From Synechococcus sp. JA-3-3Ab (GTDB lineage Bacteria > Cyanobacteriota > Cyanobacteriia > Thermostichales > Thermostichaceae), in NCBI RefSeq assembly GCF_000013205.1, contig NC_007775.1:2042501-2106500 (forward strand): a DNA stretch of 64,000 nt. Direction: 5' to 3'. The notes beneath the pieces were generated by a model that saw only the letters and a list, made by a program, of their open reading frames with translations, made no database searches and was not told where the DNA came from. Positions 50,690 to 59,647 of this stretch are shown in pieces (the first letter of the stretch is position 1; every line of letters starts with the position of its first letter). The position numbers were made by a program, and so were the translations under genes.

Positions 50690-52486
50690 CTAGAGCTTGG
50701 TGCCGCACTCGGCGCAGAACTTGTGCAGGCTGGGGTTTTTGGTGCCGCAATTGGGGCAGTAAATCAGCTCGGCGGCTTGCTCCAGTTGCCGCTTTTCCGG
50801 CAGGCCGATCATCTGGTAGTTGGCTTTGCCGGCGGGCACCATCGGGTAGCAGTTCTCGTCCCGCTTGACCACAAAATCGACCACCACCGGCCCCTCGTGG
50901 CGCAGCATCTCTTGGATGGCGTCGTCCACTTGATCGGGGTGATCGACGCGCATGCCCTTGACGCCAAAGGCTTCAGCCAGCTTGACGAAATCCGGCATGC
51001 CCGGAGTCATATCCGAGTGGGAGTAGCGCTCGCCGTGGAAAGCCTGCTGCCACTGCCGCACCATGCCCTGCCAGCCGTTGTTGATGATGGCCACCTTGGT
51101 GGCAATGCCGTACTGGGCCACCGTGCCCAGCTCCTGCATGTTCATCTGGAAGCTGGCGTCGCCGCTGATGCAGATCACCTCGGCGTGGGGCAGGGCCACT
51201 TTGACCCCCATGGCCGCCGGGAAACCGTAGCCCATGGTGCCCAGGCCAGAACTGGAGATCCACTGGCGCGGCCCGTTACGCAGAAACTGCGCCGCCCACA
51301 TTTGGTGCTGACCGACATCGGTGGTGTAGTAGGCGTGGGGAGCATGGCGACGAAAGGCATCGATCACCTGCTGCGGGGCGATCACGCCCTCATAGCGGGG
51401 CACCTGCAGGGGGTAGTCCCGTTTCCAGCGCTCGATCCGCTCCAGCCAAGCCTGCGTCTGGCCAGGGGTGTGGGGCATTTTGCTCAGTTGCGCCAACAGC
51501 TCCACCAGGACGGTGCGCACATCTCCCACAATCGGCACGTCCGGAGTGCGGTTTTTGCCCACTTCTGCCGGGTCGATATCAATGTGGATAACCTTGGCGT
51601 GCTTGGCAAATTCGTCCAGCTTGCCGGTTACGCGGTCGTCAAAGCGGGCCCCCACGGCAATCAGCAGGTCGCACTCGGTAACGGCGAAGTTGGCGTAGGC
51701 GGTGCCGTGCATGCCCAGCATCCCCACCGAGAGGGGATCGTTCTCATCGAAGGCCCCTTTGCCCATGAGGGTGGTGGTCACCGGGATCTGATAGGTGTGG
51801 GCCAGCTCGGCAATCTCGGCATGGGCACCCGAGATGATGGCCCCGCCCCCCACGTAGAGCAGGGGCCGCTTGGCCTGCAGGATCAGCTTGGCCGCCGCGT
51901 GGATCTGGCGAGGGTTGCCCCGCACCGTGGGCCGGTAGCCGGGGATATTGACCTCGCTGACCGGCTGGTAGTCGAACTCTTCCAGGCCCACATCTTTGGG
52001 GATGTCGATCAACACTGGACCGGGTCGCCCCGTGCTGGCGATGTGGAAGGCCTCGGCCACAATCCGGGCCATCTGCCGGGGGTCGCGCACCACGTAGGAG
52101 TGTTTGACAATGGGCAGGGTGATGCCAAAAATGTCAGTCTCCTGAAAGCCATCAGTACCAATCAAATGGCGGGGCACCTGGCCAGTAATGGCCACCAGAG
52201 GCACGGAGTCCATTATGGCGTTGGCGATGCCTGTCACCAAATTGGTTGCCCCCGGCCCCGAGGTGGCAAAGCACACCCCCACCTTGCCGGTAGCGCGGGC
52301 GTAGCCATCGGCAGCATGGGCAGCGGCCTGTTCGTGGCGGACTAGGAAATGTTTGAGTAGCCCTTGGGATTCGGCCTTGTACAGCTCGTCGTAGATGGGC
52401 AAGATCGCTCCTCCTGGATAGCCGAAAATGTGCTGCACCCCATGTCGATGCAGGCTATCCACCAGTGCATAGGCCCCTGTTGCCAC
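50690..52486 (-). CDS. ilvB: acetolactate synthase large subunit with C-terminal zinc ribbon
   Basis: The ThDP enzyme condenses pyruvate to acetolactate for branched-chain amino acids. The 598-residue protein shows [15 protein letters not shown], the catalytic Glu in [17 protein letters not shown], and the ThDP/Mg site [20 protein letters not shown]. The normal enzyme ends near QLEQAAEL. Here about 25 residues follow with [20 protein letters not shown], a zinc-ribbon of two CxxC pairs. Such a ribbon is unusual for IlvB. No ilvN is in the window. Confidence 0.95.
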
Positions 52487-54171: not shown

Positions 54172-55680
54172 TTAGCGGGATGCAGTCCTGGACTGCCACA
54201 GGCGCCAGCCCTGCCCAAGCAAGAGGCAGAGAACCAGGATCCCGACGAGAACCACCAGCACCAGGGCCCGCTCCAGGCGGGTGGCATAGAACCCCGTCAC
54301 CGTCCAGTTGCGGCTGAGGTTGGAGCCCAAAATGGCAAGCATAGCCAGGCCCAAAGCTTGGGTCCCTGTCCAAGGTGCCCTTCCCCTTTCTTGGTTTAGG
54401 GCTATGGGCTGCAGCGCTGCCAAGATCAAGGCGGTGATCAAGGCTGCCAGCAAGAAGGCCGCCTGCGGCTGGGCGTGGACGAAATAGCCCACCCCCAGCG
54501 GCAGGAGCAGGCTGGCCAGCGTCAGGCCGATCCCCGTCGGCAGCGGCCTGTCTTGCCCGTACACCCAGTGGACAAGCGCTGCCAGCCCCATGCTCGCCAT
54601 GCCCAGGTACAGCGCCGCCGCCACATAGGGCTGGGTGAGGTCGATCCCGGCCACCTGCAGGTTGAACTGGTGCAGCAGGTTTTGCAGCAGGGGTTGGGCC
54701 GACAAAAACAGGGCGGCCATTGCCCCCCAGCGGCTGGGAAAAGCCAGACACCCCAGCCCCAGCAGCGCCGCCCCGTAGGATCCCCCCAGCCGCAGCGCCA
54801 GCAGCGCCCCACCGCCTACCAGCGTCAGGCTCACACAGGCCCGCCAGAGCAAGGCCTCTTTCCCCTCGGGTGCCGGGATCCCGCCCTCCAAAGCCAGCAG
54901 AGCCCACGAGAGCAGCACCCCCGCCCCGTACAGCAGCGCCCAAAAGGGATCCTGGTACAGCCCGTTGCGCACCAGGGCCAAAGCCAGCGCCGTCGCCACC
55001 AGCCATCCCACACCGTGCCCCAGGGCCGACAGCAGCCGGTTGGAGCCCACCTCGCTGTCGCGCGAGGACTCCGTCCCGCTGGCGGGAACGGGGAGGATCA
55101 GCAGGGGCAGCGTGCCCGCCACCAGGCTGAGGGCAGCCAGCCCCACCGGCAGCAGCACCGACCAAGGGAGATCTTGGGGGGAGCCCATCTCCAGCAGGCG
55201 GGATCCCCAGGTCAAGGCGGCGATGCCGCTCCAGCCCTGGCCCAGACCCATCAGCACAGACAGCATCTCCGCCTCGGCCAAGCAGCCCAGCAACGGGATC
55301 CCCACCAAGCCCATCCCCAGGCCGCAGCCCCACAGCAGCAGAGAAAAAGCAGCTCCCGCCTCAGATTCCTCGAAAGCACCGCGGGCTAGGCCCCACACGC
55401 TGGCCAAGCTGAGCAGCAGCACCGCCAGCCCCTGCCCGGCCCGCCCGCAGCCGCTCAAGCCCAGCAGACCCAACCCCACCAGTCCCCCCAGCAACACCGC
55501 TAGCGGGATCGGCTCCGACAACTGTCCCAGCCCTGCCCCCAGCGCCGCCAAGGCTGCCAAGCCCAGCCCCACTGCCGGCTGCCAACGGCGAAGGGATCCC
55601 CAGCGGCGATAGCGAATCGCTTCCAACAGCAAAACCACCAAGCCAATTGCAGCCCCAATCGCCAGCGCTCCGCTTACCAT
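54172..55680 (-). CDS. polytopic membrane protein, unknown function
   Basis: The 502-residue protein is almost wholly hydrophobic, with about 14 helices separated by short loops (LAIGAAIGLVVLLLEAIRY, LLSLASVWGLARGAF, ALFLSAQPLLQNLLHQFNLQ, and so on). The Glu/Asp residues within helices are few. The pattern resembles NDH-type antiporter subunits in length only, and I see none of their motifs. It stops one base before the thioesterase ATG and probably forms an operon with it. Confidence 0.6.
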   Translation of the reverse strand: MVSGALAIGAAIGLVVLLLEAIRYRRWGSLRRWQPAVGLGLAALAALGAGLGQLSEPIPLAVLLGGLVGLGLLGLSGCGRAGQGLAVLLLSLASVWGLARGAFEESEAGAAFSLLLWGCGLGMGLVGIPLLGCLAEAEMLSVLMGLGQGWSGIAALTWGSRLLEMGSPQDLPWSVLLPVGLAALSLVAGTLPLLILPVPASGTESSRDSEVGSNRLLSALGHGVGWLVATALALALVRNGLYQDPFWALLYGAGVLLSWALLALEGGIPAPEGKEALLWRACVSLTLVGGGALLALRLGGSYGAALLGLGCLAFPSRWGAMAALFLSAQPLLQNLLHQFNLQVAGIDLTQPYVAAALYLGMASMGLAALVHWVYGQDRPLPTGIGLTLASLLLPLGVGYFVHAQPQAAFLLAALITALILAALQPIALNQERGRAPWTGTQALGLAMLAILGSNLSRNWTVTGFYATRLERALVLVVLVGILVLCLLLGQGWRLWQSRTASR

Positions 55681-55876
55681 CTCCCCCTCCTGACCAACCC
55701 TTCCTCAACTATCGCCGATCTTGGTCTGGCCATCGAAGGACTCCGTCCCGCTGGCGCAAACGGCAAAAGGGTTGACAGAAACTTGGTGCCTTATCCCCCA
55801 GCCGGGGAAGGGCAATGCCCCAAGCCGCCGAGGCGGTGGCAAAGATAAGCTGGAAAAGAGCAGCGAGCGGGCGTTC

Positions 55877-58045
55877 ATGTCTTCCGAGCATTACAAGTTC
55901 GACCTCTTCTTGCGTTACCACCGGGCCCAGGCCCGTTGGGCGCGGCAGTTGGCGGAGCGGCTGGATCGGGAGGGCTTCAAGGTCTGGTTTGACCGCTGGA
56001 TGCTACAGCCAGGAGACGACCGCCGGCTGGAGCTGCAACTGGCCATCGAACAGTGCCGCTGGGTCGGGGTGGTGGCCTCGCCGGAGTTTGTCGCCAATCC
56101 CTGGCCCAGAGATGAGCTCTACAGCGGCTTCTCCCACGCCCCGCCCCGGCAGAACCAGCGCCTGCTGACGCTGCTGCACACGCCCGCCGAGCTGCCCCGC
56201 CCCCTGGCAGAAGCGCCGCTGCTGGACTTTAGCGGCTCCGATGAGGATCCGGTGCTGTTCGAGTACCGGGCCCGGGAGCTGATGCACTTTTTGGATCCCA
56301 GCTTTCCCGCCCCCGGGGATCTGCAGCGATTTCGGCTGCAATACCGTCGCCGCGAGGAACTCCCTGAAGATGAGGAGGTGCGGGGGTTCCAGGCCTTTTT
56401 GCGGGCCATTCAAATGGCCATCCTGCGCATTGCCACCGGCGAAATGCCCTCTGCCACGCCGGAGGAAGGAGCACGCAAGATTGCCATTTTGCAATTTATT
56501 CAGCGGCTGTTTCAGTGGAACAGCGCCGACATTCAATTTGAGCGGGCCGAGGAGTGGCGCAAGCGGGGCAACCTGAGCGAGGCGCTGGCCGCCTACGACC
56601 GTGCCTTGAACATGGATCCCAACTTTGCCCTGGCCTGGAGCCGGCGCGGCGATGTGCTGGTGCAGTTGGCCCGCTACCGCGAGGCGGTGGACAGCTACAA
56701 CGGATCCCTGAGCATCAACCCCTACGACGAGGAGACGCGGCTGCGCCTGGCCCTGATTTTGGGGCGCCTGGGCCAGTACAAAGCGGCGGTGGTCAACTAC
56801 GACAAGGTGCTGGAGAGCAACCCCGAAGATGCCTTGGCCTGGCACAATCGCGGCATTCGCCTCATGCAACTGAAGCGGCCCAAGCTGGCCCTCAACAGCC
56901 TGAACAAGGCGCTGCGCTACAACCCCCAACAGCCCCGCACCTGGCTGGCGCGTGGGATCGTGCTGCGGCGGCTGCGGCGGCCCAGCTCGGCGGCGGCCAG
57001 CTTTGCCCGCGTCCTGAAGCTCAACCCCAGAAGTGGCCGGGTCTGGCGCTACCAAGGCAATGCCCTGTTCCACTGCCAGCGGCTGCGCTCGGCCATCGAG
57101 TGTTACAAGCGCTCGCTGCGGCTGCGCCGCCGGGATCCCATTACGCTCCACAACCTAGGGGTGGCTCTGCTGCGCCTGGGGCAGTATCGGCTGGCCAGCA
57201 AGGCCCTGGAACGTGCTCTGCGCTACGACGCCGACAACCCCAAAAGCTGGTATGCCCGCGGCGTGGCCTTCCAGAAATTGGGCTACCTGAGGGAGGCTTG
57301 CATTCACTTCGAGGAAGCCCTGAAAATCCGGCCAGAGGACTTCCCGGCTCGCTACGCCCTGGCGGTGGCCCAGCAGGAGCTGGGGCAATACGAAGCCAGC
57401 CTGGAGCAGTTCCGGCGCCTGGTGCAACAGCGTCCCGGCAGCTTTGCCTGCTGGTTTGGCCAGATCACCAGCCTGCGGCGCTTGGGCCGGTTGGAAGAAG
57501 CCCTTGCTGCCGCCCAACAGATGACCCGCCTCAACGAACGGGATCCCTGGGGCTGGTTTGCCTTAGGGCTAGTGTATGGCGACCTGAAAGAGGCAGAAAA
57601 AGCGGTGGAGGCCTACTCGCGGGTTTTGCAGCTCACCCCAGAAGACGCGGTGGCCCTCAACAACCGCGCCTGGGAGGCCCTGAAGCTGGGGAAATTGGAG
57701 CTGGCTCTAGCCGACGCCCAACGGGCCACAGAACTGGAGCCGCAGCGGCCCGCCTTCTGGCATACCTTGGCGCTAATCCAACTACAGGCCGGCCAGCGGG
57801 AGGCGGCCCAGGCCAGTTTGCAGCGCTGCCTGGAACTGGATCCCCAGTTTCAGCCGGCCCAAGCTGCTCTGCAGGAGCTGAACCGCGCCGGCTCCAGCTC
57901 GCCGACACCGTTGCCGGGCAACTTTGCCGAGAGCCCTGCTGCTGACGCGCCGGCAGGAACGGCGCTGCCAGAACTGAAAACCCTCACCCCTCAAGAGGAG
58001 CCGCAACCGGTAGACCGTAGGCCCCTACCGGATCCCTCCGCTTAG
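55877..58045 (+). CDS. TIR domain protein with TPR repeats
   Basis: The 722-residue protein starts at ATG 55877 (MSSEHYKFDLFLRYHRAQ). Residues about 5-105 form a TIR-like domain: FDLFLRYHRAQARWARQLAE, DREGFKVWFDRWMLQPGD, VGVVASPEFVANPWPRDELY. The Glu in WPRDELYSG sits where NAD-hydrolysing TIRs have the catalytic Glu. From about 220 to 650 there are roughly twelve TPR units (for example RGNLSEALAAYDRALNMDPN). The form suits a prokaryotic signalling or defence adaptor. NADase activity is inferred only. No defence genes flank it. Confidence 0.82.
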   Translation: MSSEHYKFDLFLRYHRAQARWARQLAERLDREGFKVWFDRWMLQPGDDRRLELQLAIEQCRWVGVVASPEFVANPWPRDELYSGFSHAPPRQNQRLLTLLHTPAELPRPLAEAPLLDFSGSDEDPVLFEYRARELMHFLDPSFPAPGDLQRFRLQYRRREELPEDEEVRGFQAFLRAIQMAILRIATGEMPSATPEEGARKIAILQFIQRLFQWNSADIQFERAEEWRKRGNLSEALAAYDRALNMDPNFALAWSRRGDVLVQLARYREAVDSYNGSLSINPYDEETRLRLALILGRLGQYKAAVVNYDKVLESNPEDALAWHNRGIRLMQLKRPKLALNSLNKALRYNPQQPRTWLARGIVLRRLRRPSSAAASFARVLKLNPRSGRVWRYQGNALFHCQRLRSAIECYKRSLRLRRRDPITLHNLGVALLRLGQYRLASKALERALRYDADNPKSWYARGVAFQKLGYLREACIHFEEALKIRPEDFPARYALAVAQQELGQYEASLEQFRRLVQQRPGSFACWFGQITSLRRLGRLEEALAAAQQMTRLNERDPWGWFALGLVYGDLKEAEKAVEAYSRVLQLTPEDAVALNNRAWEALKLGKLELALADAQRATELEPQRPAFWHTLALIQLQAGQREAAQASLQRCLELDPQFQPAQAALQELNRAGSSSPTPLPGNFAESPAADAPAGTALPELKTLTPQEEPQPVDRRPLPDPSA

Positions 58046-58715: not shown

Positions 58716-59267
58716 TCAAGGGGTACAATAGCAGCACTTAGCAAACCAACTTTGGAAGGAGGATGGATTGATCAGTAGTAAAGAAGTCTTCACTATCTGC
58801 TCCATGCTATATTTCCCAATTCTGCAAAGCTGCCGAATAAAATGCTTCAACACCGACCACATCATCTCAATGGGATTCAACTCCGGCGCATACACAGGTA
58901 GGTATAGGATTCGTGCTCCTGTCCCCCTAATCAATTCCTCAACTTCCCGACTCTTGTGGATATTTAAATCCTTCCTCGCATCTAGCTTCGGACATAGCTC
59001 GCTTCTCAAAAACTCCAAAAAATCTCCTTTCTTCATCCCACCCTTGATGACACGACAGCCAACTACACCTCTCAAGGAAATAGCTCCAATAACCGTATAC
59101 TTTTCACCCTTGTATCTCTGACGATAATGATAAGCCCTTTGACCACGTAAACTCCGAGATACTCTCCGCTCCATTCCCTCCCAGACTCCCGTCTGGTCGA
59201 TGGCAATCAAATCCTCCGCTGGAATATTCCTGACTTCTTGACTATAAGCTAGTCGTTCCCTTTGCAC
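58716..59267 (-). CDS. IS630 transposase, DDE catalytic part (orfB)
   Basis: The 183-residue frame carries the DDE core: Asp in EDLIAIDQTGVWEG, a second Asp region in DARKDLNIHKSREV, and LPVYAPELNPIEMMWSVLKH with the Glu. It lies one frame behind orfA. Upstream of its first ATG the same frame stays open back to the A8 slip site and reads KKTYRSAKVKEEEVQRERLA, which is the expected fusion sequence. It is probably made as an orfA-orfB fusion by -1 frameshifting. Confidence 0.88.
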   Translation of the reverse strand: MQRERLAYSQEVRNIPAEDLIAIDQTGVWEGMERRVSRSLRGQRAYHYRQRYKGEKYTVIGAISLRGVVGCRVIKGGMKKGDFLEFLRSELCPKLDARKDLNIHKSREVEELIRGTGARILYLPVYAPELNPIEMMWSVLKHFIRQLCRIGKYSMEQIVKTSLLLINPSSFQSWFAKCCYCTP

Positions 59268-59647
59268 CTCCTCTTCTTTGACTTTTGCACTGCGGTAGGT
59301 CTTTTTTTTAAAGTCATTCCTTGCTTTTTCAAGAAATTATGTATCGTGACGATGCTTACATTGATTCCTAAGCGCTCGCGCAACAGTTCTTGATACTGCC
59401 ACAGGTAGAAGTCTGGGTGTTCTGTAATAATTGCGATCACTTCCTGCCGATGTTGTTCCAAAATGCCCACTCGCTTGGTGCCTGCTTTCTTAGGGGCTAA
59501 ATCTTGAGTTTGTTGGTACTGACGCACCCAGCGGTGTACTGTTCTTTTGGTAACCATGAAGCGTTTAGCTACCTGGCGGATGGAGGTGCTACCTGCCTGG
59601 TAGGCTGCTACAACTCTTTGCCGCAAATCCAAAGAATGAGTCGGCAT
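59249..59647 (-). CDS. IS630 transposase, helix-turn-helix part (orfA)
   Basis: The 132-residue frame starts MPTHSLDLRQRVVAAYQAG and contains a winged/HTH region (STSIRQVAKRFMVTKRTVHR) and a second helix pair. It binds the element ends. Its frame overlaps orfB at the 3' end. An A8 run on the coding strand (59302-59309 on the plus strand as T8) is a suitable -1 slip site: TTA AAA AAA AGA can be re-read as TTA AAA AAA AAG. Confidence 0.88.
   Translation of the reverse strand: MPTHSLDLRQRVVAAYQAGSTSIRQVAKRFMVTKRTVHRWVRQYQQTQDLAPKKAGTKRVGILEQHRQEVIAIITEHPDFYLWQYQELLRERLGINVSIVTIHNFLKKQGMTLKKRPTAVQKSKKRRCKGND
59302..59309 (-). promoter_or_regulatory. A8 slippery site for -1 frameshift in IS630
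   Basis: Eight adenines on the coding strand lie where the orfB frame can be entered from orfA. The -1 frame then stays open into the DDE domain without a stop. No downstream stimulatory structure was checked. Confidence 0.6.

What the first reader, a model, noticed from the sequence alone, without database searches (positions are those of the whole stretch)
55877..58045. TIR-TPR protein with a candidate catalytic Glu, outside any visible defence island
The TIR-like N-terminus keeps a Glu in WPRDELYSG at the position used by NAD-cleaving TIRs. About a dozen TPR units follow. Bacterial TIR proteins often act in anti-phage defence or as signalling scaffolds. None of the neighbours is a known defence gene, and the gene is isolated by divergent metabolic/membrane genes.
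Basis: partly seen in the sequence, partly recalled or inferred. Interest (0 to 1): 0.55.

Follow-up and report, generated by a model that had tools for sequence, protein, structure and literature searches.

The report
Core TIR-TPR protein of hot-spring cyanobacteria
A protein that joins an immune-type TIR domain, with the amino acids such enzymes use to cut NAD, to thirteen TPR repeats is carried by every genome we could check in one order of cyanobacteria, which suggests a resident signalling switch rather than a mobile anti-virus gene; its activity has not been tested.

Summary
55877-58045 (+) encodes 722 aa: a TIR domain (Pfam TIR_2, residues 11-123, E 7e-20), a conserved linker and 13 TPRs. 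E80 aligns with the catalytic Glu of AbTIR, and W76 lies four residues before it as in AbTIR W204/E208. Glu alone is weak proof: over 70% of all TIRs keep it, some without reported activity.

It is not a patchy defence gene. A copy is present in 9 of 9 genomes of the order held here (4 genera) and is the only TIR_2 in 8 of those 9. The linker was found in 0 of 379 and 0 of 383 other genomes sampled. Selection is purifying. Conservation is concentrated in TIR, linker and TPR1-4; TPR5-13 drift. Flanks are not conserved between genera.

An unusual trait: the Ser of TIR Box 1 is Arg or His here, against Ser, Ala or Cys in 48 of 48 comparison stretches.

Best reading: a TPR-gated NAD-cleaving TIR with a resident, perhaps stress-related role (0.4). 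Scaffold (0.3) and resident anti-phage sensor (0.2) remain open. The TIR fold could not be modelled.

The parts
55877..58045 (+). TIR-linker-TPR gene, 722 aa
   Evidence: orthologues
55892..56251 (+). TIR domain, residues 6-125
   Evidence: Pfam TIR_2 residues 11-123; PDB matches
55913..55924 (+). Altered Box 1 / AA loop, R13-Y14-H15-R16
   Evidence: alignment A1; comparison with 50 TIR stretches
56102..56116 (+). W76 to E80, candidate cyclisation Trp and catalytic Glu
   Evidence: AbTIR W204/E208 from PMC10022894 and PMC10937652
56252..56530 (+). Order-specific linker, residues 126-218
56531..56938 (+). TPR1-4, conserved proximal arm, residues 219-354
   Evidence: 55% invariant
56939..57856 (+). 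TPR5-13, diverging distal arm, residues 355-660
   Evidence: 25% invariant; confident helical repeats in model
57857..58042 (+). Unconserved, mostly low-confidence tail, residues 661-722

Best explanation
It is a resident TIR switch. The TPR solenoid senses or binds a cellular partner, and the TIR, linker and TPR1-4 form a conserved signalling module. On release or clustering, the TIR cleaves NAD+ or a related nucleotide using E80 and W76, giving NAD loss or a cyclic-ADP-ribose-type signal in a standing, perhaps stress-related role of the order. Shown here: domain order, position and invariance of W76/E80, universal presence in the order sample, purifying selection. Inferred: catalysis, gating by the TPRs, the product and the trigger.
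For: W76 and E80 have the spacing of AbTIR W204/E208 and align with them and with 7uxr and 3h16. Both are invariant in 8 of 8 intact orthologues and readable in the ninth. Omega in the TIR is 0.07-0.11 in three within-genus pairs, 0 in the closest pair and 0.10 against G007. Gene present in 9 of 9 genomes of the order and the only TIR_2 in 8 of 9. TIR 52%, linker 44% and TPR1-4 55% invariant against 25% for TPR5-13. A review proposes repeat domains, TPR among them, as sensors that tune fused TIR NADases (PMC8494770, passage seen).
Against: The Glu is kept in over 70% of all TIRs, including some with no reported activity. Box 1 Ser is Arg or His here, so the pocket may be altered. The GDS motif seen in AbTIR, 7uxr and 3h16 is GDD or GDN. 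No confident TIR model. No biochemical evidence. No direct evidence of a stress role.
Confidence: 0.4

Rival explanations
1. Non-enzymatic scaffold: the TIR only self-associates or recruits partners, and E80 is kept for structural or surface reasons.
For: E75-type Glu is conserved beyond catalysis, for example in TLR1/2/6/10 (PMC7075850). Box 1 Arg/His is unlike 48 of 48 comparison stretches. TPR arrays are classical scaffolds (general knowledge).
Against: Trp four residues before the Glu, as in AbTIR, is kept in all 8 intact orthologues though only 7 of 50 comparison TIR stretches have it. The NADase AbTIR scores within 0.1 bit of the best solved match of the profile.
Confidence: 0.3
2. Resident anti-phage sensor: TPRs recognise a phage product and the TIR then depletes NAD or makes a signal, as in Thoeris-like abortive infection.
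For: Weak TIR-only matches to PADLOC PDC-S66 (E 3e-12) and ThsB models and to ThcB4 and retron-TIR. The distal TPRs diverge faster.
Against: Matches to ThcB4 and retron-TIR are far under their cut-offs, 27.1 of 220 and 25.6 of 600 bits. No defence neighbour among 10 scanned. Universal in 9 of 9 genomes, omega well under 1 in every region where it could be computed. Search for the STALD partner domain of ThsA found 0 of 9, but no control rang, so this is inconclusive.
Confidence: 0.2
3. The gene is a relic or recent acquisition without function.
For: Copy in G006 is split over frames; flanks differ between genera.
Against: 8 of 9 copies are open over 695-722 aa, omega 0.09-0.18 overall. In G006 the acetolactate-synthase-like gene is also split and the record title gives 3.2x coverage, so sequencing error is likely.
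Confidence: 0.03

Closest known systems
Bacterial TIR NADase AbTIR (and 7uxr, 3h16)
   Same: TIR with W-x3-E at the same place; best solved sequence relatives
   Different: No TPR arm in those matched chains; Box 1 FISH where this protein has FLRY; GDS where this has GDD/GDN
Group 6 bacterial TIRs of the Toshchakov and Neuwald survey (PMC7075850, passages)
   Same: [quoted passage not shown] the first of two signature Trp seems matched by W21
   Different: Mostly actinobacterial; second signature Trp is Q24; Box 1 Ser absent; BB loop is W-M-L-Q-P-G rather than W-D-x-x-P-G
TIR-TPR protein on IMG/VR contig L055
   Same: TIR_2 plus TPR repeats, W and E both kept
   Different: TPR_12/TPR_10 type repeats; about 35% identity, matched over query residues 4-100 only
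SARM1
   Same: Idea of a helical repeat arm that restrains a TIR NADase (PMC8494770)
   Different: ARM and SAM domains, eukaryotic (general knowledge); SARM1 was not among the sequence hits
Thoeris ThsB / ThcB4
   Same: TIR fold family
   Different: ThcB4 score far below its cut-off, ThsB models weak; no partner gene seen

Membership tests
TIR domain superfamily (Pfam TIR_2) | Score over the curated cut-off | tested here: met
   72 bits vs 28; 4 of 4 orthologues scanned match
Catalytic TIR NADases | Catalytic Glu at the AbTIR E208 position | tested here: met
   Sequence alignments; numbering from PMC10022894
Catalytic TIR NADases | Trp four residues before the Glu (AbTIR W204) | tested here: met
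   W76
Catalytic TIR NADases | Box 1 Ser (F-I-S-Y/H) | tested here: not met
   Arg in 8 of 9, His in 1 of 9 orthologues. Whether Box 1 Ser is required for activity is not established here, so I do not treat it as excluding
Catalytic TIR NADases | NAD+ cleavage | not testable with these tools
   Needs an enzyme assay
Catalytic TIR NADases | Glu placed in the active site of the 3D fold | tested here: inconclusive
   AlphaFold2 models of the TIR failed, mean pLDDT 54.9 for the TIR-only job
Thoeris (ThsB/ThcB4) | Score over family cut-off | tested here: not met
   ThcB4 27.1 of 220 bits; ThsB models weak, no cut-off given
Thoeris (ThsB/ThcB4) | Partner effector ThsA in the genome | tested here: inconclusive
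   STALD 0 of 9 genomes but no control rang
Survey group 6 TIR-TPR | N-terminal TIR plus C-terminal TPRs, over 700 aa | tested here: met
Survey group 6 TIR-TPR | Signature residues W15 and W18 | tested here: not met
   By eye against L031 (sequence), which I take for group-6-like: W21 matches the first Trp, Q24 stands at the second
Mobile or island-borne defence gene | Patchy presence among close relatives | tested here: not met
   9 of 9 genomes of the order

The most novel reading that the evidence does not exclude
A TIR enzyme has become a vertically inherited core gene of an order of cyanobacteria with a non-defence role. Its pocket is retuned: Arg or His replaces the Box 1 Ser next to an otherwise intact W/E pair, perhaps shifting preference toward NADP+ or another phosphorylated NAD-type substrate. 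The distal TPRs act as a metabolic or stress sensor. The NADP+ idea is pure inference.
Probability: 0.2. Interest if true: 0.75.

Novelty: new variant of a known kind. Interest (0 to 1): 0.42.

Why it matters
Bacterial TIR enzymes are mostly studied as accessory immune or virulence factors (general knowledge). In 8 of the 9 genomes checked here the only TIR_2 match is this single-copy gene, shared by the whole order sample and under purifying selection, so there are no paralogues to confuse a knock-out. It would let one ask directly whether a bacterial TIR can have a standing physiological role, and whether a TPR arm gates it as ARM repeats gate SARM1.

Tried and rejected
Defence-island reading: PADLOC scan of 10 neighbours found nothing; the universal presence speaks against it.

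Conserved partner gene: the divergent 502-aa protein lies beside the gene in the window genome and the 5 other same-genus genomes. In G006 its relative is on a different contig, and it was not found in G007 or G008, so it is not an obligate partner. A downstream co-directional gene that I recognise as aroB (no family search was run on it) follows in 4 of 5 other same-genus genomes and is absent from the window; it too is not obligate.

Phage origin: one viral-contig scan gave a single TIR-level relative, L055, not an orthologue.

Structure: the TIR-only model came out all-helical at mean pLDDT 54.9. The full-length model is confident for the TPRs but not for residues 1-123. I therefore ran no fold search.

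ThsA partner search by STALD is uninformative because no control rang.

Literature: searches showed no paper describing this protein. I read only listings and, for PMC7075850, PMC10022894, PMC10937652, PMC8195603, PMC2823733 and PMC8494770, matched passages (plus section 10 of PMC7075850). The library lacks most subscription papers.

One search was a first attempt to extract comparison TIRs; it misread the orientation of some loci and was replaced.

Full report
What is there. The gene at 55877-58045 (+) encodes 722 aa. Pfam gives TIR_2 at residues 11-123 (E 7e-20, 72 bits, cut-off 28) followed by strong TPR matches. I count 13 TPRs of 34 residues from 219 to 660, with a linker at 126-218 and an unconserved tail. 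AlphaFold2 on four orthologues models the repeats with confidence (block means 78-96 between residues 221 and 670) but not the TIR. A TIR-only job failed (mean pLDDT 54.9, all helical). The TIR assignment therefore rests on sequence, not on a model. The window lies in a single-contig genome of 2,932,766 bases; that size suggests Synechococcus sp. JA-3-3Ab, which is recall, not a tool result.

The Glu. phmmer and profile searches of PDB sequences put E80 on the Glu of the W-x-x-x-E-L stretch of AbTIR (8g83, 7uwg), 7uxr and 3h16. PMC10022894 names AbTir E208 as catalytic, and PMC10937652 reports that W204 affects the nature of the product; here W76 and E80 have the same spacing. Both are invariant in 8 of 8 intact orthologues, and the broken G006 copy still reads PWPGDEL. 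Against over-reading this, the TIR survey PMC7075850 states that this Glu is kept in more than 70% of all TIRs and in some TLRs, and does not necessarily track reported activity.

The altered loop. The Box 1 Ser of TIRs is Arg in 8 of 9 orthologues and His in one (G004), followed by Tyr-His. Among 50 distinct TIR stretches that I extracted from 22 loci (21 from other cyanobacterial genomes or from G008, one viral), the same column is Ser 35, Ala 7, Cys 6, gap 2, so 0 of 48 are Arg or His; the position two further on is never His (0 of 48). The Glu column is Glu in 45 of the 49 with a residue, and the Trp column is Trp in 7 of 50. These stretches were chosen by similarity to this TIR, and several come from one protein, so they are not independent.

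Distribution. A match to TIR plus linker is found in 9 of 9 genomes of the order, in 4 genera and 2 families. In 8 of the 9 it is the only TIR_2; G008 has 9 TIR_2 matches. In a class sample of 388 genomes, 11 matched at 1e-15: the 9 of the order and 2 with the TIR part alone. With the linker alone, 3 of 386 phylum genomes matched, all from this genus. In both searches only the best candidates per genome were scored. A pattern-based scan of genome contigs found 4 loci, all titled Synechococcus, Synechococcaceae or uncultured cyanobacterium. G006 carries the gene over several frames; its acetolactate-synthase-like gene is split too, so I think this is sequencing error in a low-coverage MAG, but did not prove it.

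Evolution. Identity to the window over the whole protein is 91, 90, 83, 84, 84, 57 and 53%; for the acetolactate-synthase-like gene 50690-52486 it is 96, 99, 93, 94, 94, 84 and 78% in the same genomes, ordered G003, G004, G002, G005, G001, G007, G008. So the gene is kept, but evolves faster than that metabolic enzyme. NG86 omega over the whole gene is 0.09-0.18 in the five pairs run; dS is saturated in parts of the pair with G007. Invariant columns over 8 orthologues: TIR 62 of 120, linker 41 of 93, TPR1-4 55%, TPR5-13 25%; the TPR difference was reached in 0 of 20000 residue shuffles, which ignore the dependence between neighbouring sites. TPR2 is the peak, 25 of 34. I built no gene tree, so vertical descent is inferred from universal presence and from identities that fall with relatedness.

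Surroundings. The divergent 502-aa protein and a FlK-type thioesterase lie next door in the window and the 5 same-genus relatives, but not beside the gene in G006, G007 or G008. In G007 the neighbours include a ferredoxin-like protein, in G008 small proteins that look like microcompartment shell proteins, in G006 a pyrH-like gene; these names are by eye. So the gene is conserved while its place is not.

Mechanism. I favour a TPR-gated TIR whose conserved half (TIR, linker, TPR1-4) is the signalling module and whose distal repeats meet a changing partner. Gating and catalysis are inferences; a review suggests repeats including TPR as sensors for fused TIR NADases (PMC8494770, passage). The altered Box 1 could mean a changed substrate or a lost activity; the data do not decide.

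Known context. TIR followed by TPRs is a known architecture (survey group 6), and TIR proteins with NB-ARC, WD40, GUN4 or TPR partners appear among the other hits (8 ORFs scanned). This family lacks a group 6 signature residue and has its own linker, so I file it as a new variant of a known kind. Eight literature searches found no description of it.

Noticed in passing
window 55839-55876: The leader just before the ATG is strongly conserved in the six same-genus genomes (GCAAAGATAAGCTG identical in all six). In L034 and L035 an in-frame stop lies within it, so it is probably a promoter or ribosome-binding element rather than coding.
   Followed up: partly
window 58716-59647: IS630-type transposase in two overlapping frames (58716-59267 DDE_3, 59249-59647 HTH) downstream of the gene; programmed frameshift or decay.
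   Followed up: no
L032, L033, L034, L035: A co-directional gene that looks like 3-dehydroquinate synthase (by eye) follows the TIR-TPR gene closely in 4 of 5 other same-genus genomes but not in the window.
   Followed up: partly
window 54172-55680: 502-aa hydrophobic protein with no Pfam or NCBIfam match, found in 7 of 9 genomes of the order.
   Followed up: partly
window 50690-52486: TPP-dependent acetolactate-synthase-like enzyme carries a C-terminal zinc ribbon (about residues 574-598), which I believe is unusual for this enzyme (recalled).
   Followed up: no
L012, L013, L020, L024, L026, L053: Other cyanobacteria encode single proteins with three to five tandem TIR domains; the similar L011 protein has WD40 repeats after them.
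   Followed up: no
L027 1462-2457: TIR fused to the tetrapyrrole-binding GUN4 domain in another cyanobacterium.
   Followed up: no
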